From Catenulispora sp. MAP5-51 (GTDB lineage: Bacteria > Actinomycetota > Actinomycetes > Streptomycetales > Catenulisporaceae): DNA of 64,000 bases. Location of the stretch: positions 1 to 64,000 of the forward strand of contig NZ_JBGCCH010000043.1 of the NCBI RefSeq assembly GCF_041261205.1, written 5' to 3'. Within the stretch, counting starts at the first letter, position 1, and each line of letters starts with the position of its first letter. Below, piece by piece: positions 10,178-39,725 of the stretch. The notes beneath the pieces were generated by a model. The model was not told the origin of the DNA, did not search any database, and saw only the letters and a program-made list of their open reading frames with translations. The translations under genes were made by a program, and so were the position numbers.

Positions 10178-10812
10178 GCGCTGAGACCAGGACCGAGCAG
10201 ACGCGCGCGGTGATCCTGCGGGCGGCGTGCGAGGTGATCGCCGAGTCCGGGTTCGAGAAGGTCAGGATGCGGATGGTGGCCGAGCGGGCCGGCGTGTCCA
10301 CGGCCGCGCTGCACTATCACTTCGACACCCGCGAGAAGCTCTTCCTGGAAGCGCTGCGCTACTCCTACGACACCACGGGCTCTGAGAACACCGCGAGCGC
10401 GCCGCCGTCGGAGACCCCGCACTCCTGGCTCCTGGCCCGGGCCATCGACGACTGCCTGCCCGGCGACACCGAACTGCGGCGCGACTTCCTGCTGTGGCAG
10501 GAACTGCATCTGCGCGCCGTCCGGGATCCCGACTCGCGGTCCGTCGCCCGCGACCTGTACGCGAACCTGCGGGACTGGATCGCCGGCATCGTCCGCGACG
10601 GCCAGGGCGCCGGCGAGTTCGGGGCCTGCGACGTCGGGCGGCTGGCCGACCTGATCATCGCCCTCACCGACGGCTACGGCGCGCGGATCCTGCTCGGCGC
10701 CTCGGCGATGACGCTGGACGACGCGCGCGACCAGATCTGGGCCGTCGTCGCCCCGCAGCTCGGGGTGCACACGCCGATTCCGGCCACCGGTCCGCGGATC
10801 GCCGCCGGGTAG
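10174..10812 (+). CDS. TetR family transcriptional regulator
   Basis: A 212-aa TetR-type repressor. The N-terminal helix-turn-helix spans residues ~10-56, with AACEVIAESGFEKVRM, the recognition helix region GVSTAALHYHF and the following DTREKLF helix. The C-terminal ligand domain is helical and ends in a TLDDARDQIWAVVAPQL helix. It is coupled to the Rieske gene by a 4-bp overlap. The two matching palindromes at 8795 and 8852 sit in the promoter that divides the Rieske/tetR unit from the NuoF-like operon, so it probably controls both, including itself. The polyamine genes start 247 bp downstream. The inducer is unknown. Confidence 0.85.
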   Translation: MSAETRTEQTRAVILRAACEVIAESGFEKVRMRMVAERAGVSTAALHYHFDTREKLFLEALRYSYDTTGSENTASAPPSETPHSWLLARAIDDCLPGDTELRRDFLLWQELHLRAVRDPDSRSVARDLYANLRDWIAGIVRDGQGAGEFGACDVGRLADLIIALTDGYGARILLGASAMTLDDARDQIWAVVAPQLGVHTPIPATGPRIAAG

Positions 10813-11059
10813 GACCCGGCGAAGCCGGAGCCGACGACCCACATCTCCATAACCGTGCCGCGCCACCGCGGCAGTGCAGTGTGCAGAGCCCGCGTCGCAG
10901 CCACCGGCGCGCGGTGAAAAACAGGTCCCGCGTACCGCTTCGGGCCGGTGACTCCCCCTCATAGCGCTCGACCCCGCCACCGGCGGTCCTGGGTACCGCC
11001 TTGCCGCGAACCGGACGCCCGGTGCCGGGCCCCTCCCACCCACGACGAAAGGACAAGCC
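10813..11059. other. Intergenic region before potD
   Basis: A 247-bp gap. The only structure I see is a short inverted repeat at 10856-10873 (7-bp arms TGCCGCG/CGCGGCA, 4-nt loop), a possible weak terminator or operator. AAAGGA lies just before the potD GTG. No further operator of the CTGACYAATYGRTYAG type is visible. Confidence 0.4.
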
Positions 11060-12241
11060 GTGTCCCGCCAGTCTTCCGAGGAGTCCTTCGAGCCATCCCG
11101 CGAGCCATCCCGCCGATCGCTGCTGCGCGCCGGGGCGGCCGGGGCTGTGGCCCTGACCGCGGCCGGGTGCGGCTTCACCGGGTCGAACTCGGCCGCCGGA
11201 GCCGCAGGGTCCCCGGGCTCGGCGGCCGCTGCGTCGACCGAGCCGCCCATCGACGTCAAGGTGGACGGCGACCTGGTGTACTTCAACTGGGCCGACTACG
11301 TCGACCCGTCGGTCTTCGACGGGTTCCAGAAGGAGTACGGCGTCAAGGTCGTCCAGTCCAACTTCGACTCGATGGAGTCGATGGGCGCCAAGCTGGCCGC
11401 CGGGAACAAGTACGACATCGTCTTCCCCTCGGCCAAGTGGACCCAGCGCCTGGCCGCCGGCGGGAAGCTGCACCGCATCGACCACACGGCGCTGAAGAAC
11501 GCCCCGGCGATCTTCGACCACTACGACTACTTCCAGGACCCCTGGTACGACGACGCCTCCTCGCACAGTGTCCCGTTCACCATGTACAAGACCGGGATCG
11601 GCTGGCGCAAGGACAAGCTCGGGGACCTGACCGGCTCCTGGCAGGACCTGTGGTCCCCGGCCGCCGACGGCGACGTCTTCCTGCTGGACGACGAGGACGA
11701 GGTGCTGGGCATGGCCGCGCTGAAGCTCGGCCTGGCGATCAACACCGCCGACGCCGGCGACCTGGCGAAGATCGACGCGGAGCTGAAGAATCTGCGCCCG
11801 CGGCTGCGCGGCTTCTCCAGCGACGACTACAACAACCTGCTCAACGGCAACGCCCTGATGACCCAGGCCTGGAGCGGCGACATGGTCTCCGTGCTCAACC
11901 AGGCCAAGGACGCCTCGGTCTACGGGTTCCAGACGGCCAGGGAGGGCTCGCCGGTCAACACCGACTGCTACGTGATCCCGGCCAACGCCGAACACCCCGG
12001 CACGGCGATGCTCTTCATCGACTACATGCTGCGGCCGGAGAACGTCACCAAGAACATCGAATACATCGGCTACCCGATGCCCGTGAACGGCACCGAGGAC
12101 GCCTACGCGAAGCTCGTCGCGCAGTTCCCCCAATGCGTCATCAAGCCCGAGGACCTGGTGACGAACCGCATGTTCCAGAACGGCACGGCTGCCCAGGGGC
12201 ACGCCCGCGACGCCGTGTGGACCGACGTGAAAGCCGGCTGA
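11060..12241 (+). CDS. potD: Polyamine ABC transporter, substrate-binding lipoprotein (PotD-like)
   Basis: A 393-aa extracytoplasmic binding protein of the spermidine/putrescine type. The N-terminus combines an arginine pair (PSRRSLLRAG) with a hydrophobic stretch and the lipobox LTAAGC, so it is probably an exported lipoprotein, possibly through the Tat pathway. The mature part has the family fold: VYFNWADYVDPSVFDGFQK near its start, then KYDIVFPSAKW, a GIGWRKDKL stretch, and a PANAEHPGTAMLFIDYML region. GTG at 11060 follows AAAGGA. It heads the run potD-potB-potC-potA followed by amine oxidase and aldehyde dehydrogenase, which supports a polyamine or amine substrate; the exact ligand is not readable. 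Confidence 0.85.
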   Translation: MSRQSSEESFEPSREPSRRSLLRAGAAGAVALTAAGCGFTGSNSAAGAAGSPGSAAAASTEPPIDVKVDGDLVYFNWADYVDPSVFDGFQKEYGVKVVQSNFDSMESMGAKLAAGNKYDIVFPSAKWTQRLAAGGKLHRIDHTALKNAPAIFDHYDYFQDPWYDDASSHSVPFTMYKTGIGWRKDKLGDLTGSWQDLWSPAADGDVFLLDDEDEVLGMAALKLGLAINTADAGDLAKIDAELKNLRPRLRGFSSDDYNNLLNGNALMTQAWSGDMVSVLNQAKDASVYGFQTAREGSPVNTDCYVIPANAEHPGTAMLFIDYMLRPENVTKNIEYIGYPMPVNGTEDAYAKLVAQFPQCVIKPEDLVTNRMFQNGTAAQGHARDAVWTDVKAG

Positions 12242-15204: not shown

Positions 15205-16569
15205 ATGCACAACTACGACGTGATCGTCCTCGGCGCGGGCCTGGCCGGACTGTCCGCCGCGCGGGATCTGGCCGCCGGCGGCGCGGACGTCCTGGTCCTG
15301 GAAGCCCGGGACCGGGTCGGCGGCCGGGTCGAGCAGGCGGTGCTCGACGACGGCCGGATCGTGCAGCTCGGCGGCGAGGTGGTCGGACGCGCGCACACCG
15401 CGTATCTGGGCCTGGTCGCCGAACTCGGCCTGACGCTGGTCCCGAGCTACGTCGCCGAGCCCGGCATCATCGCGCGCTCCACGCCGGAGGGCATCTCGGC
15501 CGGGGATCCGCCGCACTGGTTCGGTCCGCACGACGAGGTCTGTCAGCGGCGGGTGACGCAGGAGTTCGTGGACCTCGCCCGAACCGTCGACCCGGACGAC
15601 CCGTGGTCGCACCCCGAGGCCGCGGCGCTCGACGCGCTGTCGGTGGGACAGTGGCTGCGGTCCGTCGGCGCGACTCCCGAGGTCGTGCGGCTGTGGGAGA
15701 TCGGGCAGCTGAGCCTGGCCAGCGGCTCGGTCGAGCGGACGTCGCTGCTCGGCGCGCTGCGCAAGAACGCGGCGGTGCCGAGCGCGGGGCACTACGACTA
15801 CGAGGACTGGGAAGGGCTGCGCGTCGCCGAGGGTTCGGCGACGGTGGCCCTGGCCATGACCGTCGAGCTGGGGCACCGGGTGCGGACCGGTGCCGCGGTG
15901 GCGGCTGTGGATGTGCGGGCTGGGTCGTCTGGGTCGTCTGGGTCCGCCGGGTCCGCCGCGTCCGGGCCGGGGCGCTGCACGGTCCGCCTTGTCGGCGGCG
16001 AGACGCTGACCGCCGACGCGGTGGTCAGCGCGCTGCCGGTGGGGCCGCTGCGGTCGGTCGCCGTGACCGGGGTGTCGGAGGCGCGGCTCGCCTCGCTGCA
16101 CGCGCAGCGCCAGGCGTGCGCGGCGAAGTTGGCGGTGGCGTACGAGCGGCCGTTCTGGCGCGAGCAGGGGATGAACGGTCTGTCCGAGTGCGAGGACGTG
16201 CTCGGCAGCACCTGGCCGCAGGGGGTCGGGCTGCTCTCGGCGCTGATCCCGCCCGAGCGGTACGGCGTGATGCTGGGGATGCCTCCGCAGGCACGTATGC
16301 GGGAGCTGATATCGGACATCGCGCGGCTCTACGGTCCCGAGGCCGAGCAGCCCACCGCCGCCTACTTGCGGATGTGGGGAACCGATCCGTGGACGCAGGG
16401 ATACGTGACGCAATGGGCTCCCGGAGACGTGATGCGGGTTGGACCGCTGCACGGCACGCATGAGCCGCCGTTCTACGTGTGCGGCTCGGATCAGTGGGTC
16501 GCCGGATACATGGAGGGCGCGGTCCGGACCGGCCGCGCGACGGCCACGGAGGTGCTGCGGCATGGCTGA
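15205..16569 (+). CDS. Flavin-containing amine oxidase (putrescine oxidase-like)
   Basis: A 454-aa FAD-dependent amine oxidase. The FAD fold opens with YDVIVLGAGLAGLSAARDL at residue ~4, followed by the VLEARDRVGGR motif of monoamine and polyamine oxidases. A C-terminal VAGYMEGAVRTGRATA region closes the FAD site. The reaction oxidises an amine to an aldehyde with release of H2O2 and ammonia. It follows potA by 22 bp with a GGAAGGAG ribosome site, and it overlaps the aldehyde dehydrogenase start by 8 bp. Import, oxidase and dehydrogenase together fit putrescine to 4-aminobutyraldehyde to GABA. A GSSGSSGSAGSAASG insertion near residue 240 comes from a short DNA repeat and is probably a surface loop. 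Confidence 0.85.
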   Translation: MHNYDVIVLGAGLAGLSAARDLAAGGADVLVLEARDRVGGRVEQAVLDDGRIVQLGGEVVGRAHTAYLGLVAELGLTLVPSYVAEPGIIARSTPEGISAGDPPHWFGPHDEVCQRRVTQEFVDLARTVDPDDPWSHPEAAALDALSVGQWLRSVGATPEVVRLWEIGQLSLASGSVERTSLLGALRKNAAVPSAGHYDYEDWEGLRVAEGSATVALAMTVELGHRVRTGAAVAAVDVRAGSSGSSGSAGSAASGPGRCTVRLVGGETLTADAVVSALPVGPLRSVAVTGVSEARLASLHAQRQACAAKLAVAYERPFWREQGMNGLSECEDVLGSTWPQGVGLLSALIPPERYGVMLGMPPQARMRELISDIARLYGPEAEQPTAAYLRMWGTDPWTQGYVTQWAPGDVMRVGPLHGTHEPPFYVCGSDQWVAGYMEGAVRTGRATATEVLRHG

Positions 16570-17992
16570 GATCCCCGCTGAGATCCCCACCGTCCTCAAC
16601 GTCATCGGCGGACGGGAGTCCGCGGCGGCCTCCGGCGCGCTCCTGGATCTCGTCGATCCCTCGACCGGCCGGGTCGCAGGCCGCTCGGCCTTGTCCGACG
16701 CCGCCGACGTCCACACGGCCTGCGCCGCGGCATCCTCCGCCTCCGACACCTGGTCGGTGACCACTCCCGCCGAACGCCAGCGGGCGTTGCTGCGCATCGC
16801 CGACGACGTCGAGGCGCGGGCCGGGGCGCTCGCCGACGCGGAGGTCCGGGAGACCGGCAAGCCCCGGGCCCTGTTCCTGCGGGACGAGTTCCCGGCGATC
16901 GTCGACGTGCTGCGGTTCTTCGCCGGGGCGGCCCGGAACCTGCCGGGCGCGGCGGCGGCCGAGTACATCGAGGGCCGGACGTCGATGCTGCGGCGCGAGC
17001 CGGTCGGGGTGTGCGCGCAGATCACGCCGTGGAACTACCCGCTGATGATGGCGGTGTGGAAGCTCGCGCCGGCGGTGGCCGCGGGCAACACCACGGTGCT
17101 GAAACCCGCCGACAGCACACCCTCCACGACGGCGCTGCTCGGGCGCATCGCCGCGGAGCACCTGCCCCCGGGCGTCGTCAACGTCGTGTGCGGCGACCGC
17201 GAGACCGGGCGCGCGCTGGTGGCGCATCCGGCGGTCGCGCTCGTCGCGGTGACCGGGAGCGTGCGCGCCGGCCGCCAGATCGCGGCCGCGTGCGCCGCCG
17301 ACCTCAAGCGCGTCCATCTGGAGCTCGGCGGCAACGCCCCGGTCGTCGTGCACGGCGACGTGGACGTGGAGGCGACGGCCGCCGCGCTGGCCGGCGTCGC
17401 GTTCTACAACGCGGGGCAGGACTGCACGGCGGCGACGCGGCTGCTGGTCGACCGGTCGATCCACGACGCGTTCGTGGCGGCGTTCACCGACCAGGTCAAG
17501 GCACTGCGCACCGGCCCCTCCCCCGACGCCGACTTCGGCCCCCTCAACAACGCCGCACAGCTGGCCGCGGTACGCGGCGTCCTGGAACGCCTGCCGCCGC
17601 ACGCGGAAGTGACGATCGGCGGCCGCGCCCTCGACGTCCCCGGCTGGTACCACGAACCGACGGTGGTCGTGCACGCCGCCCAGGAGGACGAGATCGTCCA
17701 GGAGGAGACCTTCGGCCCGGTCGTGACCGTGCAGTCGTTCGCCACCGAGGCCGAGGCCATGACGCTGGCCAACGGCGTCCGCCACGGACTGGCCGCGAGC
17801 GTGTGGACCCGCGACCACGACCGCGCGATGCGAGCCGTCCGCGGCTTCCGCTCCGGAATCGCCTGGGTGAACACGCACGGCACCACGGTGTCGGAGATGC
17901 CGCACGGCGGCATCGGGCACTCCGGCTACGGCAGCGATCTGTCGATGGCCGGGTTGCTGGACTACACGCAGGTCAAGCACGTCATGGTGTGA
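16562..17992 (+). CDS. Aldehyde dehydrogenase (aminobutyraldehyde dehydrogenase-like)
   Basis: A 476-aa NAD(P)-dependent aldehyde dehydrogenase. Cofactor-binding QITPWNYPLMMAVWK and VTGSVRAGRQI, the general base Glu in LELGGNAPV, and the nucleophile Cys in NAGQDCTAATR are all present, so the enzyme looks complete. ATG at 16562 overlaps the amine oxidase stop. It would oxidise the aldehyde made by the oxidase to an acid, for example 4-aminobutyraldehyde to GABA, as in polyamine catabolism. It is the last gene of the pot operon and converges with the HAD gene, 14 bp away; no hairpin is obvious in that gap. Confidence 0.87.
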   Translation: MAEIPAEIPTVLNVIGGRESAAASGALLDLVDPSTGRVAGRSALSDAADVHTACAAASSASDTWSVTTPAERQRALLRIADDVEARAGALADAEVRETGKPRALFLRDEFPAIVDVLRFFAGAARNLPGAAAAEYIEGRTSMLRREPVGVCAQITPWNYPLMMAVWKLAPAVAAGNTTVLKPADSTPSTTALLGRIAAEHLPPGVVNVVCGDRETGRALVAHPAVALVAVTGSVRAGRQIAAACAADLKRVHLELGGNAPVVVHGDVDVEATAAALAGVAFYNAGQDCTAATRLLVDRSIHDAFVAAFTDQVKALRTGPSPDADFGPLNNAAQLAAVRGVLERLPPHAEVTIGGRALDVPGWYHEPTVVVHAAQEDEIVQEETFGPVVTVQSFATEAEAMTLANGVRHGLAASVWTRDHDRAMRAVRGFRSGIAWVNTHGTTVSEMPHGGIGHSGYGSDLSMAGLLDYTQVKHVMV

Positions 17993-31912: not shown

Positions 31913-33631
31913 TTGGAACCGCTGCTGTCTGCCGATCCGCGCACGATCGCCCGGTTCCGGCTGCTGGCCCGGCTCGGCTCGGGGGGCATGGGCGAGGTCT
32001 TCCTGGCGCTGACCCCCGACGGCCGGCAGGTCGCGGTCAAGGTCGTGCGGGGCGGCTTCGAGAGCACCGAGGCGATGGCCCGGTTCCGGCACGAGGTGGA
32101 GGCCGTCGGAAGGCTGCGCAGCCGGTGGACCGCCGCGCTGGAGGACGCCGACCTGACCGGCAGGCCCATCTGGCTGGCCACGGAGTACGTGCCCGGCCCG
32201 ACGCTGGCCGCTGCGGTCGCGCGGTTCGGCGCGATGCCGCCGAGCGTGGTGCGGCACCTGGCCGCGGGGCTCGCCGAAGCGGTCGCCGACGTGCACGCCC
32301 ACGGCGTCCTGCACCGCGACCTGAAGCCGAACAACGTCATCATGTCGCCGTCCGGCCCGCGGCTGATCGACTTCGGGATCGCCCGGACCGGCGACCAGAC
32401 GGCGCTGACCCACACCGGCAGTGCGGTCGGCACGCCCGGGTACCTGGCGCCGGAGGTCGTGCGCGGCGGCGCGCCGAGCCCGGCGGCCGACATCTTCGCC
32501 GTCGGCGCGATGCTCGCCTACGCCGCGACCGGCCGTCCGCCGTTCGGGGTCGGCGACCCGCACGCGATCATGTTCCGCAGCGTCGAGAACCCGGCGGACA
32601 CCGACGGCGTCGAGCCGGCCCTGGCCGCCCTGATCGCCGAGTACACGGCCAAGGACCCGGCGGCCCGGCCGGCCGCCGCCGATCTGCTCGCCGCGGTCGC
32701 GGGCCGGGCGACGGCCGACGACGCGCGGGCCGTCGCGGCGTTCTACGACGCTCTGTCCACGATCGCCGACACCGCGCCGCAGGACGTGCAGACCGCCACC
32801 GGGATGGGCCTTCTTCCCCCGAGCACGTCCGACGCCGAAGCGGTGCCGCGAAGGACCCGCCGGCTCGCGGTGGCTCTCGTCTCGGCCGTCGCGGTCATCG
32901 CGGTCGCGCTGGCGGTGGAGTTCTTCCCGGGCACCACCGATCACACGCAGCACGGCGCGAGCGGCGGCCTGGCGCCGACGTCCACGCCTACGCCGTCGGC
33001 CGACGGGTCGCTCGCGGCGAAGGCCATCAGCGGCTCGAACGCCGCCACGACTACGACCACGGCCACGACCACAGCCACGGGCGGCGAAGGCGGCACCACG
33101 ACCGGCACGACCTCCCCGGCGACCCCGTCGTCGGCGAGCACCGCTCCCCCGACCACGTTCCTGCGCGACCGCCCGGGCACCCAGGCCGTCGAGAACACGA
33201 CCCAGTGGAATCCGCAGACGTTCCAGTGCGAGAACAGCCCGACTCGCGAGGAAACCCTGCCGAACACCTTCGGATTCCAGAGCTCCGTCGCCCGCGACCC
33301 GGTCGCGAAGGGCACGCCGGTCACCATCGGCTTCCGCAGCAAGGAGCCGAATCCGGGAGCCCCGTACTACATGGCCGCCGAAGTCGTTCCCCCGGCGGAC
33401 TTCGGCGGCAACGCCGTGGTCTTCCGGTGGAACGACAAGCCCCAGCCGTTGGGCGTCGACTGGACGAACGCCACCTTCCCCAAGGACTTCACCTCCACGC
33501 TCAGTGCGCCCGGCGCCGAAAGTTCTCCGGCCGCGACCGACTTCCCCGGGAACTACGTCGTCCTGTGGTTCCACGTCCACAGCGACGGCGAGGCCTACTA
33601 CGTGTCCTGCGACGGTTTCACCGTCCACTGA
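31913..33631 (+). CDS. Membrane Ser/Thr protein kinase (Hanks type) with extracellular domain
   Basis: A 572-aa transmembrane kinase. The kinase domain (residues ~15-270) has the glycine loop LGSGGMGEVF, VAVKVV with the ATP-binding Lys, the catalytic loop VLHRDLKPNNVIM, IDFGIAR (DFG), and the GTPGYLAPEV activation segment end. A membrane helix follows at ~322-342, then a Thr/Ser/Gly-rich linker with TTTTATTTATG repeats and an extracellular domain of ~170 residues with two Cys and no PASTA repeats. It starts at TTG 31913 behind GGAGGAGGGG. It probably senses an outside signal and phosphorylates cytoplasmic proteins. The extracellular family is unknown to me. Confidence 0.88.
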   Translation: MEPLLSADPRTIARFRLLARLGSGGMGEVFLALTPDGRQVAVKVVRGGFESTEAMARFRHEVEAVGRLRSRWTAALEDADLTGRPIWLATEYVPGPTLAAAVARFGAMPPSVVRHLAAGLAEAVADVHAHGVLHRDLKPNNVIMSPSGPRLIDFGIARTGDQTALTHTGSAVGTPGYLAPEVVRGGAPSPAADIFAVGAMLAYAATGRPPFGVGDPHAIMFRSVENPADTDGVEPALAALIAEYTAKDPAARPAAADLLAAVAGRATADDARAVAAFYDALSTIADTAPQDVQTATGMGLLPPSTSDAEAVPRRTRRLAVALVSAVAVIAVALAVEFFPGTTDHTQHGASGGLAPTSTPTPSADGSLAAKAISGSNAATTTTTATTTATGGEGGTTTGTTSPATPSSASTAPPTTFLRDRPGTQAVENTTQWNPQTFQCENSPTREETLPNTFGFQSSVARDPVAKGTPVTIGFRSKEPNPGAPYYMAAEVVPPADFGGNAVVFRWNDKPQPLGVDWTNATFPKDFTSTLSAPGAESSPAATDFPGNYVVLWFHVHSDGEAYYVSCDGFTVH

Positions 33632-33732: not shown

Positions 33733-34272
33733 ATGAACCCCCACCCCCAGGCCGCCGCACGGGTCGAGCACGTCTTCGACCTCTTCGACACCGACGGCAA
33801 CGGCTTCATCGAGGCCGCCGACATCGCGCTCATGACGAACCGGGTGGTCGCGGCCGCGACCGGATCGGACCGGGCCGCCAAGGACGCGATGCGCGCCGCC
33901 TTCGACCGCTACTGGACCACGATGGCCGACGAGCTCGACCGGAACGGCGACGGGCGGATCAGCGCCGAGGAGTTCCGGGCCTTCGTGCTCAGCCCGGAGC
34001 GTTTCGGCGCGGCCGTCGAGCAGTTCGCCGAGGCGCTGTCCGCACTCGGCGACCCCGACGGCGACGGGCTCATCGAGCGCCCGGTCTTCGAGGCGCTGAT
34101 GACGGCGATCGGCTTCGGGCACGAGAACCTGCACGCGCTCTTCGACTCCTTCGGCCCCACCGCGCAGGACCAGGTCGAGGCGGAGGTGTGGCGGGCCGCG
34201 ATCGTGGAGTTCTACGACCCGGGCGACGGCGACACCCGCGGCAACCACCTGATCCCCGCGCAACAGCGCTGA
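33733..34272 (+). CDS. EF-hand calcium-binding protein (calerythrin-like)
   Basis: A 179-aa soluble four-EF-hand protein. Three canonical loops are visible: [12 protein letters not shown] near residue 19, [12 protein letters not shown] near 69, and [12 protein letters not shown] near 108. A fourth hand near residue 142 is degenerate ([15 protein letters not shown]). This arrangement matches bacterial sarcoplasmic-type proteins such as calerythrin, which buffer or sense Ca2+. ATG at 33733 lies just after GGGAGG. The furan synthase gene begins 23 bp after the stop, so the two are probably cotranscribed. Why a Ca2+ protein would lead this set is unclear. Confidence 0.85.
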
Positions 34273-34295
34273 GCCCCCGCGGAAAGGAGAAGGCG

Positions 34296-35084
34296 TTGCT
34301 GCTGCTCATATCCCCGGCCGACGTCGAAGAAGCCCGCGAGTGCGCGAAGGCGTCGCAGTACCTGGACATCGTCGACGTCAAGAAGCCGGACGAGGGCTCG
34401 CTCGGCGCGAACTTCCCGTGGGTGATCCGGGAGATCCGCGACGCCGTGCCGGCGGACAAGCCGGTGTCCGCGACAGTGGGGGACGTGCCCTACAAACCCG
34501 GCACGGTCGCCCAGGCAGCCCTGGGCGCGGCCGTCTCGGGCGCCACGTACATCAAGGTCGGCCTCTTCGGCTGCTCGACGCCCGACCAGGCCGTCACCGT
34601 CATGCGCGCCGTCGTGCGGGCGGTGAAGGACTACCGGCCGGACGCGCTCGTCGTCGCCTCGGGCTATGCCGACGCCCACCGCATCGGCTGCGTCAACCCG
34701 CTCGCGCTGCCCGACATCGCCGGCCGCTCCGGCTGCGACGCGGCCATGCTCGACACCGCCGTCAAGGACGGGACCCGGCTGTTCGACCACGTGCCGCCCG
34801 ACCTGTGCGCGGAGTTCGTCCGGCGGGCCCACGACTCCGGCCTGTTCGCGGCGCTCGCGGGCAGCGTCAGGGCGGACGACCTGGGCACGCTCACCGCCAT
34901 CGGCACGGACATCGTGGGCGTGCGCGGGGCGGTGTGCGAGCGCGGCGACCGCACCACCGGACGGATCCAACCGCATCTGGTGGCGGCGTTCCGGGCCGAG
35001 ATGGACCGGCACAGGGACCTGCACAGCCAGGAACAGAGCCGGGAACAGAACCGGGAACAGAGCACCGTCCCCGCCGGGAACTGA
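34296..35084 (+). CDS. mfnB: (5-formylfuran-3-yl)methyl phosphate synthase (MfnB-like, DUF556)
   Basis: A 262-aa homologue of MfnB, the enzyme that condenses two glyceraldehyde-3-phosphates into the furan precursor of methanofuran. All five residues I recall as functional in the methanogen enzyme MJ1099 (Asp25, Lys27, Lys85, Asp151, Lys155) are present at a constant offset of +2: Asp27 and Lys29 in [11 protein letters not shown], Lys87 in YIKVG, Asp153 and Lys157 in MLDTAVKDG. The start is the TTG at 34296 behind AAAGGAGAAGG; the open frame upstream overlaps the EF-hand gene. The C-terminal 20 residues are a [12 protein letters not shown] repeat tail. Methanofuran is not expected in this host, so another furan product is inferred. 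The aldehyde dehydrogenase follows by 9 bp. Confidence 0.85.
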
Positions 35085-35093
35085 CCCATCGGC

Positions 35094-36509
35094 ATGCCGA
35101 CGCCCCAGCCCCGCCGCCCGCACCAGACCCGCAGCGGCCGCGGCAGCTTCGCGGTCCTGGACCCCGCGACCGGCGAACCCTTCGACGAGGCGCCCGACCA
35201 ACGCCCCGAGGAACTGGACGCGATCGTCGACCGGGCCCACACGGCCTGGCTCCACTGGCGCGCCGACACCAACGCCGACGCCCGCGCCGCCGCACTGCTC
35301 GCGGCGGCCGACGCGGTGGAGCAGGCCGGGCCGGACCTGGCCCCCCTGCTCACCCGCGAGCAGGGCAAGCCGCTGCCGGAGTCCTACGCGGAGGTGGCCC
35401 GCACCGCGGCCCGCCTGCGCTACTTCGCCACGCTCGCCCCGCAGACCCAGCCGATCCAGGACGGCCGAGCCGTGCGCAGCGAGATCCGCTGGCGGCCGCT
35501 GGGTCCGGTCGCCGCGATCGTCCCGTGGAACTTCCCGCTCCAACTCGCCTCCGCAAAGTTCGCTCCGGCGCTGGCCGCGGGCAACACGGTGGTGCTCAAA
35601 CCCTCCCCCTTCACGCCGCTGGCCACCAGGATGCTGGGATCGGTCCTGGCCGCCGTCCTGCCCGAGGACGTCCTCACGATCGTCACCGGCCGCGAACCCC
35701 TCGGCGAGCGCCTCGCCTCCCACCCGGGGATCCGCCACGTCACCTTCACCGGCTCGGTGCCCACCGGCCGCGCCGTGGCGCGGGGCGCGGCGTCCTCACT
35801 GGCCAGGGTCACCCTGGAGCTGGGCGGCAACGACGCCGCGATCCTGCTCGACGACGTGGACGTGGAGCAGATCGCGGACCGGCTGTTCTGGGCGGCGTTC
35901 CGCAACTGCGGGCAGATCTGCATGGCGGTCAAGCGCGTCTACGCCCCGGTCCGGCTCTACTCCGAGGTCGTCGAAGCCCTCGCGCAGCGCGCGAATCAGA
36001 CCGTCGTGGGGCCGGGTCTGGAAGCGGGATCGCAACTGGGACCGGTCAACAACGCTCCTCAGCTCGCCCGGATCGAGCGCTACGCGGCCGGGGCCCTGGC
36101 AGCCGGCGCCCGCGCGGCGGCCGGCGGAGGCCGGCTCGACAGGCCGGGCTACTTCTTCGCCCCGACGATCCTGGCCGACGTCCCGGCCCAAAGCCCGGTG
36201 GTCACTCAGGAGCAGTTCGGCCCGGTACTGCCGGTACTGCCGTATCAAAGTGTTGAGCAGGCCGTCGAAGCGGCCAACGACACCGGCTTCGGCCTCGGCG
36301 GCTCGGTGTGGGGAACCGATCTGGACCGGGCCGAGCAGGTGGCCGGACGGCTCGAATGCGGGACGGTCTGGATCAACCACCACGGCGAACTCTCCCTGGC
36401 CCAGCCGTTCGCGGGCGCCAAGGAAAGCGGCGTGGGTGTCGCGGGCGGGCCGTGGGGCTTGTCCGGGAACCTGCGACCGTTCGTCGTGCACCGGCCTCTG
36501 GAGGCGTGA
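35094..36509 (+). CDS. Aldehyde dehydrogenase in the furan gene set
   Basis: A 471-aa NAD(P)-dependent aldehyde dehydrogenase. Motifs: IVPWNFPLQLASAK and LKPSPFTPLAT for cofactor binding, TGSVPTGRAV, base Glu in LELGGND, nucleophile Cys in NCGQICMAVKR, and a C-terminal QPFAGAKESGVGV. All catalytic residues are intact. Standing between mfnB and an aryl-alcohol dehydrogenase, it could oxidise the formyl group of the furan to a carboxylate; this is inferred from context. ATG at 35094 lies 9 bp after mfnB, and the alcohol dehydrogenase GTG follows the stop by 1 bp. It is distinct from the polyamine-linked paralogue at 16562-17992. Confidence 0.87.
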   Translation: MPTPQPRRPHQTRSGRGSFAVLDPATGEPFDEAPDQRPEELDAIVDRAHTAWLHWRADTNADARAAALLAAADAVEQAGPDLAPLLTREQGKPLPESYAEVARTAARLRYFATLAPQTQPIQDGRAVRSEIRWRPLGPVAAIVPWNFPLQLASAKFAPALAAGNTVVLKPSPFTPLATRMLGSVLAAVLPEDVLTIVTGREPLGERLASHPGIRHVTFTGSVPTGRAVARGAASSLARVTLELGGNDAAILLDDVDVEQIADRLFWAAFRNCGQICMAVKRVYAPVRLYSEVVEALAQRANQTVVGPGLEAGSQLGPVNNAPQLARIERYAAGALAAGARAAAGGGRLDRPGYFFAPTILADVPAQSPVVTQEQFGPVLPVLPYQSVEQAVEAANDTGFGLGGSVWGTDLDRAEQVAGRLECGTVWINHHGELSLAQPFAGAKESGVGVAGGPWGLSGNLRPFVVHRPLEA

Positions 36510-36510
36510 C

Positions 36511-37608
36511 GTGGGCATCCGGTTCGGCGCGGCGGTACTGCGTTCCCCCGAGGGCCGGTTCACCGTCGAGCAGGTGGCCTTGGACGCGGGACCGGCGCCG
36601 GACGAGGTGCTGGTCAGGATCGCGGGGTGCGGGATGTGCCGCACCGACCTGGCCGTCCGCCGCTCGGCGGGCCGCTCGCCGCTGCCGGCGGTCCTCGGCC
36701 ACGAGGGCGCCGGGGTCGTCGTGGAGACGGGAGGCCCGGACACCCGGCCGGCCGTCGGCGACCACGTCGTACTGAGCTTCGACTCCTGCGGACACTGCCA
36801 CGCCTGTCTCGGCGGCGCCCCCGCCTACTGTGATTCCTTCGCCGAGCTCAACCTGTTCGGTGGGCGTACCGAGAACGCAGCGCGGTTCGCCGACGCGGCC
36901 GGAATCCCCTTGGCGCCCCGGTGGTTCGGCCAGTCCTCGTTCGCCGAGTACGCGATGGTCCCGGCCCGCAACGCCGTCCGGGTCGATCCCGCGCTGCCCG
37001 TGGAACTGCTCGGCCCGCTCGGCTGCGGCTTCCTCACCGGCGCCGGGGCCGTCCTGAACACCTTCGGCGCCGGGCCCGGCGATGCCCTCGCCGTCCTCGG
37101 CGCGGGCGCCGTGGGCCTGGCGGCGATCATGGCGGCGGCCGCTGCCGGGGCCGTGGTCGTGGCCGTCGACCGGCACCCCGAGCGCCTGGCGATGGCCGAG
37201 CGCTTCGGCGCCGTCCCGCTGTACGGGACCGGCGGCCTCGCCGACCGTATCAGGCGGCTGACGGACGGCGGGGTGCGGTACGCGCTGGACACCACGGTCT
37301 CGCCGGAACTGATCAACGAAGCACTCAGGGCTCTGCGACCGACCGGCCATCTCGGCCTGGTGGCACGGCTCCACCAGACGCTGCCGCTGGAGCCCGGTGC
37401 TCTGGACCGAGGCCGGAAGCTGTCCCACATCTGCGAGGGCGACGCGGTGCCCGGCCTGCTCATCCCACGGCTGACCAAGCTCTGGCAGGCCGGCCGTTTC
37501 CCCTTCGACCAGCTCATTCGCACCTACCCGCTCGACGAGATCAACGAGGCCGAGCACGACTGCGAGACGGGGCGCGTCGTCAAGCCGGTCCTGATACCCG
37601 CGTCCTGA
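36511..37608 (+). CDS. Zinc-dependent aryl-alcohol dehydrogenase-like protein
   Basis: A 365-aa medium-chain alcohol dehydrogenase. Catalytic zinc ligands are in GCGMCRTDL and GHEGAG; the structural zinc site is C-x2-C-x2-C-x7-C (SCGHCHACLGGAPAYC). A GPLGCGFLTGAGAVLN segment and the NAD fold LAVLGAGAVGLAA follow. The GPLGCG-TGAGAVLN pattern is typical of benzyl/aryl-alcohol dehydrogenases, which act on a CH2OH next to an aromatic ring; a hydroxymethylfuran would suit. The start is the GTG at 36511, 1 bp after the previous stop. The frame is open far upstream, but that is a shadow of the aldehyde dehydrogenase. Confidence 0.87.
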   Translation: MGIRFGAAVLRSPEGRFTVEQVALDAGPAPDEVLVRIAGCGMCRTDLAVRRSAGRSPLPAVLGHEGAGVVVETGGPDTRPAVGDHVVLSFDSCGHCHACLGGAPAYCDSFAELNLFGGRTENAARFADAAGIPLAPRWFGQSSFAEYAMVPARNAVRVDPALPVELLGPLGCGFLTGAGAVLNTFGAGPGDALAVLGAGAVGLAAIMAAAAAGAVVVAVDRHPERLAMAERFGAVPLYGTGGLADRIRRLTDGGVRYALDTTVSPELINEALRALRPTGHLGLVARLHQTLPLEPGALDRGRKLSHICEGDAVPGLLIPRLTKLWQAGRFPFDQLIRTYPLDEINEAEHDCETGRVVKPVLIPAS

Positions 37609-37649
37609 TATCCCGTCCTGATCCCGCCGCGCAGCAAGAAGGAGCATCC

Positions 37650-38558
37650 ATGACGGCCGACCTGACGCAGCCGAACACCGGCACGGGAGGCGTGGACGGC
37701 GGCGTCGGCGTCACCGCCCTCCTGGTCGCCGCGGCCCGCGCGATCGAGACCCACCGCCCCGACAGCCTCGCCCAGGACCTGTTCGCCGAACACTTCGTGC
37801 ACAGCGCGCCGGCCTCGGCGGGTTGGCCGGTGCGCATCGACCAGGTCCCGGACGGCGACGCGAACCCGTTGTGGGGCCGCTTCGCCCGCTACTTCGGCCT
37901 GCGGACCAGGGTCTTCGACGACTTCCTCCTACAAGCGGTCCACGCCGGCGCACACCAGGTCGTCCTGCTCGGAGCCGGGCTCGACGCGCGGGCCTACCGG
38001 CTCGACTGGCCCGCCGGCTGCGTGATCTTCGAGCTGGACCGGGAAGGCGTGCTGGCGTTCAAGCACAGGGTGCTCAAGGGCCTGGCGGCCACCCCGAAGG
38101 CGGCACGTGTCCCGATCCCGACCGACCTGCGCGCCGACTGGGTCAGGGCCCTGACAGACGCGGGCTTCGACCCGGCGGCCCCGAGCGCCTGGCTGGCCGA
38201 GGGCCTGCTGTTCTACCTGCCCGGCGCCGCCGAGACGCAGCTCGTCACCGCGGTGGACCGGCTGGCCGCGCCCGGAAGCGAGCTGGCCTTCGAAGTGAAA
38301 CTCGATGAGGACCTGATGGCACACCGGGACAGCCCCCTCTACACCGAGACCAGGCGCCAGATCGGCATCGACCTGCTCGACCTGTTCGCGAAGGAGGCGC
38401 GACCGGACTCCGCGGGCGACTTGGCGCGCAGAGGCTGGTCCACGTCAGTCGCCACCCCGTACGAATACACCGTCCGCCTCGGCCGCGGTCCGCTGCCCGA
38501 GCCGAACGACGCGCTGGGCGGGAACCGGTGGGTGTTCGCCGATCGCCGGACGCCATGA
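37650..38558 (+). CDS. SAM-dependent methyltransferase, leucine carboxyl methyltransferase (LCMT) family
   Basis: A 302-aa class I methyltransferase of the LCMT/PPM family. SAM-binding VVLLGAGLDARAYRLDWP near residue 108 is followed by an acidic ribose contact (FELDRE) and an AWLAEGLLFYLP motif typical of the family. Members methylate carboxyl groups of proteins or of secondary metabolites (TcmP-type), so it could make a methyl ester of a furan carboxylate; this is context-based. ATG at 37650 follows AAGAAGGAG. The gap from the dehydrogenase is 41 bp, consistent with the same operon. Confidence 0.82.
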   Translation: MTADLTQPNTGTGGVDGGVGVTALLVAAARAIETHRPDSLAQDLFAEHFVHSAPASAGWPVRIDQVPDGDANPLWGRFARYFGLRTRVFDDFLLQAVHAGAHQVVLLGAGLDARAYRLDWPAGCVIFELDREGVLAFKHRVLKGLAATPKAARVPIPTDLRADWVRALTDAGFDPAAPSAWLAEGLLFYLPGAAETQLVTAVDRLAAPGSELAFEVKLDEDLMAHRDSPLYTETRRQIGIDLLDLFAKEARPDSAGDLARRGWSTSVATPYEYTVRLGRGPLPEPNDALGGNRWVFADRRTP

Positions 38559-38663: not shown

Positions 38664-39725
38664 GTGGCAATACCCTTGGCAATACCCTTCGACGCCGGGC
38701 TGCTGGACGTGTATCGCACGATGCGGGAGACGGCCGGAACACCGATGAGCATGGAGCGGCTCGCGGAGATCCGGGCCGAGGACGCCGCCGAGCTGCCGAC
38801 GCTCGACGAGCTGTCCCGGGGTGGCCGCTTCGACGTGGCTTCGTACTCGGTGCCGGTATCGGCATCGGCATCGGCGTCCGCGGCGGCATCGGAATCAGCG
38901 TCCGCGACATCCGGCGAACCCGAGGTCACGCTGCTGGTCTGCACGCCGGTGTCGGCCCCGGCCACCGAGCGCCCCGCGATCTACGTCACGCACGGCGGCG
39001 GCTACTTCAGCGGCGATCACCGGCACCTGTTCTTCCTCGACCCGCTGCTGGACGACGCCGCGCACTTCGGGGCCTCGGTGGTCTCGGTCGGGTACCGGCT
39101 CGCGCCGGAGCATCCATATCCGGCGCAGATCGACGACGTCTACTCCGGACTGCTCTGGACCGCCGGCCACGCGGCCGAACTCGGACTGGACCCGGAGCGG
39201 ATCGTCGTCGCGGGCACCAGCGCCGGCGGCGGTCTGACGGCGGCGCTGGCCTCGCTGGTGCGCGACCAGGGCGGCCCGCGACTGCTCGGGCAGATGTTGA
39301 TGTGCCCGATGCTCGACGACCGAAACGACAGCGACTCGGCGTACCAGATGGACGGTGCCGACGTCTGGGACCGGAGCTGGAACGGGTTCGGGTGGCAGGC
39401 CATGCTGGGGTCCGCGCGCGGCGGCCCGGACGTGTCGCCCTACGCCGCGCCGGCCCGGGCCACGGACCTGTCCGGTCTGCCGCCGGCGTTCATCGACGTC
39501 GGCTCGGCGGAGACGCTGCGCGACGAGGCCCTCGCCCACGCCGACCGCATCTGGCGGGCCGGCGGCTCGGCCGAGCTGCACGTGTGGCCCGGCGGCTTCC
39601 ACGCGTTCGATCTCGTGGTCCCGGACGCCGCACTCAGCCGGGAGGCTCGGCGGGCGCGTCGTTCGTGGTTGGGGCGGGTCTTGGCCGCTGGAGCGCTTCC
39701 GGCTCGGGAACCGGCGCAGTCCTAG
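38664..39725 (+). CDS. Alpha/beta hydrolase, hormone-sensitive-lipase type esterase
   Basis: A 353-aa esterase of the HSL (family IV) group. The oxyanion motif is THGGGYFSGD, the nucleophile elbow is GTSAGGGLTAAL, and the Asp and His of the triad lie in the IDVGSAETLRDEA and GGFHAFD regions. An N-terminal cap helix segment precedes a low-complexity PVSASASASAAASESASA stretch (residues ~64-81) from a 6-bp-type DNA repeat. It starts at GTG 38664, 105 bp after the methyltransferase. It may be a last member of the furan set (ester hydrolysis or acyl transfer) or independent. Confidence 0.82.
   Translation: MAIPLAIPFDAGLLDVYRTMRETAGTPMSMERLAEIRAEDAAELPTLDELSRGGRFDVASYSVPVSASASASAAASESASATSGEPEVTLLVCTPVSAPATERPAIYVTHGGGYFSGDHRHLFFLDPLLDDAAHFGASVVSVGYRLAPEHPYPAQIDDVYSGLLWTAGHAAELGLDPERIVVAGTSAGGGLTAALASLVRDQGGPRLLGQMLMCPMLDDRNDSDSAYQMDGADVWDRSWNGFGWQAMLGSARGGPDVSPYAAPARATDLSGLPPAFIDVGSAETLRDEALAHADRIWRAGGSAELHVWPGGFHAFDLVVPDAALSREARRARRSWLGRVLAAGALPAREPAQS

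What the first reader, a model, noticed from the sequence alone, without database searches (positions are those of the whole stretch)
34296..38558. Methanofuran-type furan synthase in a compact actinomycete gene set
Seen: an MfnB homologue with all five functional residues I recall at a constant +2 offset, followed without gaps by an aldehyde dehydrogenase, an aryl-alcohol-type dehydrogenase and an LCMT-type methyltransferase. Known: MfnB makes (5-formylfuran-3-yl)methyl phosphate from two glyceraldehyde-3-phosphates. Inferred: after phosphate loss, the formyl and hydroxymethyl groups could be oxidised and a carboxylate methylated, giving a small furan (mono- or dicarboxylate, perhaps a methyl ester). 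I know of no described pathway of this form; it is the best candidate here for a new system.
Basis: partly seen in the sequence, partly recalled or inferred. Interest (0 to 1): 0.82.

Follow-up and report, generated by a model that had tools for sequence, protein, structure and literature searches.

The report
Travelling four-gene furan-making cassette
Catenulispora and many Streptomyces carry a compact, co-inherited gene set that borrows the furan-ring enzyme of the methanofuran coenzyme and pairs it with two dehydrogenases and a carboxyl-methyltransferase, probably to make a small furan ester; I found no description of it and no product is known.

Summary
MfnB passes the curated furan-synthase model; its five catalytic positions are unchanged in 81 of 81 sequences. 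Plasmids carry the cassette too. It is not a methanofuran pathway: MCH and FTR are absent from all 24 carriers, while two distant actinobacterial mfnB genomes have FTR and one also MCH. Two findings modify the reading. ALDH is internally deleted in 5 of 78 loci and nearly gone on one plasmid, while mfnB, ADH and LCM persist, so the core is MfnB-ADH-LCM. An EF-hand gene co-occurs strongly and also partners LCM in a different cassette. Most likely product: a small 2,4-disubstituted furan carboxylate methyl ester (inferred; phosphatase and product unknown). Ten literature searches found no description.

The parts
33733..34272 (+). EF-hand protein, 179 aa; first gene of the run in Catenulispora, probable accessory or regulatory member
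   Evidence: PF13499/PF00036; 23 nt before mfnB; orthologue (E<=1e-20) in 21 of 24 mfnB+ and 3 of 75 mfnB- related genomes (Fisher p 2e-15, not corrected for kinship)
34281..34289 (+). ribosome-binding-site-like GGAAAGGAG before the TTG start of mfnB
   Evidence: read directly; a similar GAAGGAG-type stretch precedes mfnB in the relatives printed
34296..35084 (+). [quoted passage not shown]
   Evidence: NF002573 402 bits, cut-off 341; PDB 4rc1/4u9p MJ1099 E 2e-83; catalytic positions 81 of 81
35094..36509 (+). aldehyde dehydrogenase, 471 aa; catalytic E242 and C276 present (roles recalled)
   Evidence: PF00171; internally deleted in 5 of 78 relatives
36511..37608 (+). zinc MDR alcohol dehydrogenase of the benzyl-alcohol type, 365 aa
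   Evidence: PF08240 and PF00107; PDB 5tnx, 1f8f; C43, H64, C172 and C93/C96/C99/C107 in 79 of 79
37650..38558 (+). LCM-family (TIGR00027) SAM methyltransferase, 302 aa
   Evidence: PF04072 188 bits, TIGR00027 266 bits against cut-off 93.55; PDB 2ckd, 6id6

Best explanation
A self-contained, horizontally mobile furan biosynthetic cassette. MfnB condenses two glyceraldehyde-3-phosphates to (5-formylfuran-3-yl)methyl phosphate (reaction known for the family; here inferred from sequence). A general host phosphatase releases 4-hydroxymethylfurfural (inferred). The benzyl-alcohol-type ADH and the ALDH, an XylB/XylC-like pair, set the oxidation state of the two side carbons (inferred); where the cassette ALDH is lost, a housekeeping ALDH may do this. 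The LCM-type methyltransferase caps a carboxylate as a methyl ester (inferred from the family), giving a small neutral furan such as methyl 4-(hydroxymethyl)furan-2-carboxylate, its 4-formyl analogue or a 2,4-dicarboxylate methyl ester, which could leave the cell as a signal, volatile or antibiotic. The EF-hand protein is a probable calcium-responsive accessory. Subjective sub-confidences: dedicated co-inherited unit 0.95; MfnB makes the furan phosphate 0.85; product a furan carboxylate methyl ester 0.5.
For: Unit: of the 80 closest mfnB loci, ADH in 78 of 78 and LCM in 77 of 77 that reach them; in 99 related genomes mfnB in 24, ADH at >=76% identity in the same 24, LCM at >=70% in the same 24, ALDH at >=77% in 23 of the 24 (in the 24th, G094, the fetched mfnB stretch breaks off after mfnB and ADH and LCM lie on another contig). 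Protein distances of the four genes correlate, r 0.79-0.85, over 69 full loci. Outside the cassette and EF-hand families no gene family recurs in more than 12 of 81 loci (crude gene calls). Plasmid copies. Active sites conserved. Not methanofuran: MCH and FTR 0 of 24 each, with positives in the two more distant mfnB genomes. Close spacing: 9, 1 and 41 nt.
Against: No phosphatase in the cassette. ALDH internally deleted in L023, L031, L063, L079, L083 (5 of 78) and nearly gone on pSCAT, frameshifted in L044 and L069, so the step given to it is not required in all carriers. LCM is inverted in 11 of 77 loci and about 3 kb further off in L065, so it is not always in the operon; L081 and L088 have it in two pieces and L069 with an internal stop. 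LCM and EF-hand also occur with unrelated enzymes in three mfnB-negative genomes, so the LCM substrate need not be a furan. The only PDB relatives of LCM (2ckd, 6id6) have, as far as I recall, no known substrate. No transporter or receptor was seen to recur. The correlations are not corrected for kinship of the hosts. No chemistry was done.
Confidence: 0.55

Rival explanations
1. Reductive or mixed variant: ADH reduces the formyl group, giving 2,4-bis(hydroxymethyl)furan or a phosphate of it; ALDH only removes stray aldehyde; LCM acts on a different carboxylate of the same pathway.
For: Core kept without the cassette ALDH in 5 of 78 loci and on pSCAT; zinc MDR ADHs are reversible (general knowledge).
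Against: ALDH is covered over its whole length in 73 of 78 loci that reach beyond it (two of the 73, L044 and L069, with a frameshift), and where the positions exist E242 is kept in 74 of 75 and C276 in 75 of 75, so it usually matters; LCM-type enzymes are known for carboxylates (recalled).
Confidence: 0.2
2. The cassette supplies a furan building block to a larger natural product made by genes elsewhere.
For: The EF-hand orthologue lies on another contig or more than 180 kb away in 9 of the 21 EF-positive mfnB+ genomes, so partners can lie apart.
Against: No shared biosynthetic genes around the cassette in 81 loci by a crude gene caller; the annotated plasmid copies sit in unrelated contexts; terminal methylation suits an end product.
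Confidence: 0.12
3. MfnB has drifted to another aldol-type condensation and the set is an aldehyde-handling or catabolic operon.
For: I found no assay of an enzyme of this clade in print (ten searches); ALDH and ADH often belong to catabolism.
Against: MfnB is over the curated cut-off, all five catalytic positions are unchanged in 81 of 81, and it is the best conserved of the four (mean pairwise identity 90%).
Confidence: 0.08
4. A methanofuran- or methylofuran-like C1 coenzyme is made.
For: MfnB is otherwise known from that pathway.
Against: MCH and FTR in 0 of 24 carriers, while the distant actinobacterial mfnB genome G140 has both and G365 has FTR (but no MCH; 88% complete); the one Azospirillum mfnB region read lies near formylmethanofuran dehydrogenase genes.
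Confidence: 0.03

Closest known systems
MfnB of Methanocaldococcus jannaschii (MJ1099, PDB 4rc1/4u9p)
   Same: Full-length homology, same NCBIfam equivalog, same catalytic residues
   Different: There it feeds methanofuran; here the neighbours are ALDH, ADH and a methyltransferase, and two C1 marker enzymes are absent
Methylofuran biosynthesis in methylotrophic bacteria (MfnB = Orf22 in M. extorquens; PMC8141765, passages read)
   Same: Bacterial use of mfnB
   Different: Assumed to continue by a transaminase, MfnE, MfnF and glutamate ligases; in Azospirillum, mfnB (37% identical) lies with kinase-, DUF447-, formylmethanofuran dehydrogenase and fhcD genes
Methylenomycin furans (MmfL/MmfH/MmfP; review PMC6604932, passages read)
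   Same: Small furan carboxylate made in part from a triose phosphate in Streptomyces
   Different: [quoted passage not shown] no AfsA-type domain among the cassette proteins
XylB/XylC benzyl-alcohol and benzaldehyde dehydrogenase pair (pair recalled; ADH match 1f8f)
   Same: Zinc benzyl-alcohol-type ADH beside an ALDH
   Different: Catabolic for toluene-type compounds; here tied to a ring-forming enzyme
TcmP-type carboxyl methyltransferases (recalled; no call identified one)
   Same: LCM-family methyltransferase in a Streptomyces biosynthetic setting
   Different: TcmP acts on a polyketide carboxylate; the only PDB relatives of this enzyme by sequence are mycobacterial ML2640 and Rv0731c

Membership tests
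[quoted passage not shown]
   NF002573 402.3 bits against 341; PF04476 270.7 against 22.4
[quoted passage not shown] K27 Schiff base from PMC6604932 and K155 from PMC11365854, passages read; the others recalled) | tested here: met
   Aligned; unchanged in 81 of 81
[quoted passage not shown]
   needs an assay
Methanofuran/methylofuran biosynthesis and C1 use | Genome holds FTR and MCH of the formyl-methanofuran route | tested here: not met
   0 of 24 carriers for each; G140 positive for both, G365 for FTR only
Methanofuran/methylofuran biosynthesis and C1 use | mfnB beside MfnE-type kinase, ligase or formyl-MFR genes | tested here: not met
   Neighbours are ALDH, ADH, LCM; contrast one Azospirillum region. 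MfnC, MfnE and MfnF were not searched for elsewhere in the genome
Methylenomycin-furan / gamma-butyrolactone class | AfsA-type (MmfL-like) condensing enzyme in the cluster | tested here: not met
   None among the Pfam hits of the 8 window ORFs scanned, all five cassette proteins among them
Benzyl/aryl-alcohol dehydrogenase (zinc MDR) | Catalytic and structural zinc ligands and similarity to known members | tested here: met
   C43, H64, C172 and four structural Cys in 79 of 79 (roles recalled); 1f8f E 2e-78. It is below the cut-off of every NCBIfam equivalog listed, so the substrate is open
LCM carboxyl methyltransferase | PF04072 domain and SAM motif | tested here: met
   188 bits; G108, G110, D112, R114 of the GAGLDxR motif in 78 of 78
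LCM carboxyl methyltransferase | Methylates a carboxylate | not testable with these tools
   needs an assay

The most novel reading that the evidence does not exclude
A mobile pathway that makes a diffusible furan methyl ester (signal, volatile or antibiotic) straight from glycolytic triose phosphate, present in about a fifth of the genomes sampled from one related genus (17 of 84 of genus g4, unnamed, presumably Streptomyces) and on plasmids, and one of a wider set of EF-hand plus LCM cassettes that methyl-cap different small acids under calcium control.
Probability: 0.25. Interest if true: 0.82.

Novelty: new variant of a known kind. Interest (0 to 1): 0.64.

Why it matters
It shows a coenzyme-pathway ring synthase moved into what looks like small-molecule biosynthesis in antibiotic-producing actinomycetes. 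Four or five small genes suffice for expression and mass spectrometry, so a common but apparently undescribed metabolite is directly testable. MfnB-derived 2,4-furans are also wanted as bio-based building blocks (PMC6604932, passages read), and this would be a natural MfnB plus dehydrogenase set.

Tried and rejected
Methanofuran-type coenzyme: rejected by absence of MCH and FTR in 24 of 24 carriers. Downstream alpha/beta hydrolase (38664-39725): not taken as part of the unit; no match in 79 of 80 relatives' loci and a 38% match in L084, but some loci end soon after LCM (L010 and L011 among them), so within Catenulispora only L009 tests it. Other recurring neighbours such as a phosphatase, transporter or regulator: none found, with a crude gene caller that split or missed genes (LCM itself was not picked out as a separate family), so a weak negative. 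Unlinked EF-hand genes as pointers to a second pathway locus: L132-L136 share a chromosomal setting (P450-like and type III polyketide-synthase-like proteins, judged by eye), which looks like vertical inheritance in one clade. One stop reported inside the ADH matches of six genomes (G016, G046, G060, G079, G092, G093): fetched and aligned, no stop within the aligned gene; it is the normal end. RNA element in the conserved leader upstream of Streptomyces mfnB: only weak covariation, -0.46 kcal/mol in 25 sequences; no Rfam match in the window. Defence-system membership: no PADLOC match. Literature: ten searches; the library lacks most subscription papers, so prior description cannot be excluded. 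Structure prediction was not run, because solved homologues cover the four enzymes.
Full report
What is there. The window lies in a Catenulispora-like genome of 10.9 Mb (size; the nearest named loci are C. rubra, C. pinistramenti and C. pinisilvae). At 34296-38558, + strand, four genes follow closely: mfnB (TTG start after the ribosome-binding-site-like GGAAAGGAG), ALDH, zinc ADH (GTG start) and an LCM-family methyltransferase, with gaps of 9, 1 and 41 nt. An EF-hand gene ends 23 nt before mfnB. An alpha/beta hydrolase gene follows 105 nt after LCM; it was matched in only 1 of 80 relatives' loci, at 38%, though some of those loci end too early to tell.

MfnB. It scores 402 bits against the curated model NF002573 (cut-off 341) and aligns over residues 1-231 with M. 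jannaschii MJ1099 (PDB 4rc1). K27 as the Schiff-base lysine is from PMC6604932 and K155 as catalytic from PMC11365854 (passages read); the other residues I recall from the primary papers.

Conservation of the set. A pattern scan of the genome collection found 201 relatives and kept the best 80. In those 80 loci the ALDH gene, or part or a remnant of it, follows mfnB in 80; two (L037, L053) break off inside it at a contig end. ADH follows in 78 of 78 that reach it. LCM is found in 77 of 77 that reach it (L033 ends after ADH); it is on the other strand in 11 of the 77 and about 3 kb further off in L065. The hosts are Streptomyces, Kitasatospora, Streptacidiphilus, Actinacidiphila and Catenulispora (titles). 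These are the closest 80, so this says nothing of remoter mfnB genes.

Co-occurrence. In 99 related genomes, the window's own included: mfnB in 24; ADH at 76% identity or more in the same 24, and one other at 53%; LCM at 70% or more in the same 24, three mfnB-negative genomes at 62-63% and four at 44-46%; ALDH at 77% or more in 23 of the 24, and two others at 47%. In the exception, G094, the fetched mfnB stretch (L111, 2453 bases) breaks off after mfnB, and ADH and LCM lie on another contig. Six ADH matches were listed with one stop; on fetching them the stop proved to be the normal end of the gene. Distance matrices of the four proteins over 69 full loci correlate at r 0.79-0.85, 0 of 999 permutations reaching the value; shared descent of the hosts contributes to this. 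Across the phylum the family is rare: 5 of 296 genomes, the window's own included.

Mobility. In the plasmid collection 13 of 38 matching records are 80-90% identical (Streptomyces and Streptantibioticus). I read 5 of those 13: four hold all four genes, and the S. cattleyicolor megaplasmid pSCAT holds mfnB, ADH and an inverted LCM, with no ALDH match and, by eye, only the last codons of ALDH left. An EF-hand match lies within the fetched stretch in 3 of the 5.

Not methanofuran. MCH and FTR families are absent from all 24 carriers, while the distant actinobacterial mfnB genome G140 has both and G365 has FTR but no MCH (it is 88% complete). An Azospirillum mfnB region (1 read of the 25 plasmid records under 60% identity) lies near formylmethanofuran dehydrogenase genes, and a paper on Burkholderia insect symbionts lists the synthase in a region together with formylmethanofuran dehydrogenase subunit B (PMC9088363, passage read). 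So the cassette mfnB appears to have left that pathway. MfnC, MfnE and MfnF were not searched for.

ALDH is dispensable. In L023, L031, L063, L079 and L083 (5 of the 78 loci that reach beyond ALDH) large internal deletions with different end points leave a remnant whose frame stays open up to ADH; in L031 the usual start codon lies in another frame. L044 and L069 have frameshifts. In the five deletion loci LCM and mfnB are covered as fully as elsewhere; ADH is in one piece in four, and in L031 in two frames. In four of those five genomes the best other ALDH is only 36-44% identical; in the fifth, that of L023, nothing but the remnant reached E 1e-80. So the gene has not moved elsewhere. Because ALDH ends 1 nt before ADH in the window, kept open frames may preserve translational coupling (inference). 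The methyltransferase therefore does not depend on this ALDH in every carrier: another ALDH may serve, or the substrate differs.

EF-hand partner. EF-hand orthologues (E up to 1e-20) occur in 24 of 99 genomes: 21 of the 24 with mfnB (missing in G034, G073, G092; one stop inside the match of G065) and 3 of the 75 without (Fisher p 2e-15, and 1e-10 within the 84 genomes of genus g4, unnamed but presumably Streptomyces; neither corrected for kinship). Within 9 kb of mfnB it is found in 33 of 80 loci. In nine mfnB+ genomes it lies on another contig or more than 180 kb away, five of these in one shared chromosomal setting, so part of the correlation is clade effect. The three mfnB-negative genomes with it, G026, G051 and G058, are exactly those with LCM at 62-63%; there an EF-hand gene, an Iso_dh-family dehydrogenase, an isochorismatase-family hydrolase and LCM stand in one run. 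Pfam confirmed Iso_dh in L121 and L122, isochorismatase in L121 and LCM in L122; the rest rests on blastp and on reading the frames, and the LCM match in G051 has one stop inside. EF-hand plus LCM thus looks like a reusable module.

Upstream region. In Streptomyces-type loci a leader of about 170 nt before mfnB is conserved in different genomic settings (judged by eye); in the Catenulispora loci the EF-hand gene takes its place. RNA covariation is weak, so I regard it as promoter and leader DNA.

Mechanism. Shown: gene order, families, active-site residues, co-inheritance, absence of two C1 markers. Inferred: MfnB makes (5-formylfuran-3-yl)methyl phosphate; a host phosphatase acts; the benzyl-alcohol-type ADH (nearest PDB 5tnx and 1f8f) and ALDH set oxidation levels; LCM esterifies a carboxylate. 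A furan methyl ester is my best guess for the product, at about even odds.

Literature. Ten searches turned up no account of mfnB outside C1 coenzymes in actinomycetes. I read passages of PMC6604932, PMC9088363, PMC11365854, PMC9966152 and PMC8141765, and otherwise saw search listings only. The library lacks most subscription papers.

Noticed in passing
L121:4656-8036, L122:4043-7415, L141:6841-10071: Second type of cassette in three mfnB-negative genomes: EF-hand, Iso_dh-family dehydrogenase, isochorismatase-family hydrolase, LCM methyltransferase (62-63% identical to the window's LCM; one stop inside the match in L121).
   Followed up: partly
L023, L031, L063, L079, L083 about 10800-11550; L125:9757-9847: Repeated internal deletions of the cassette ALDH with remnant frames open up to ADH, and near-total loss on pSCAT.
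   Followed up: yes
L120:4973-8778 (minus strand): HAD-family hydrolase, a 202-aa protein linked to the EF-hand group only by single-linkage blastp and without a Pfam match, an ADH 52-53% identical to the cassette ADH, and a P450-like protein (judged by eye), in one run.
   Followed up: partly
about 170 nt upstream of mfnB in Streptomyces-type loci among L012-L088: Conserved leader that travels with the cassette in Streptomyces but is not seen in Catenulispora.
   Followed up: partly
window 31913-33631 (+): Protein kinase domain protein (PF00069) upstream of the EF-hand gene; link to the cassette not tested.
   Followed up: no
window 16439-17992 (+): A second ALDH-family gene in the window (PF00171); the match in this region is 37% identical to the cassette ALDH (L004).
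   Followed up: no
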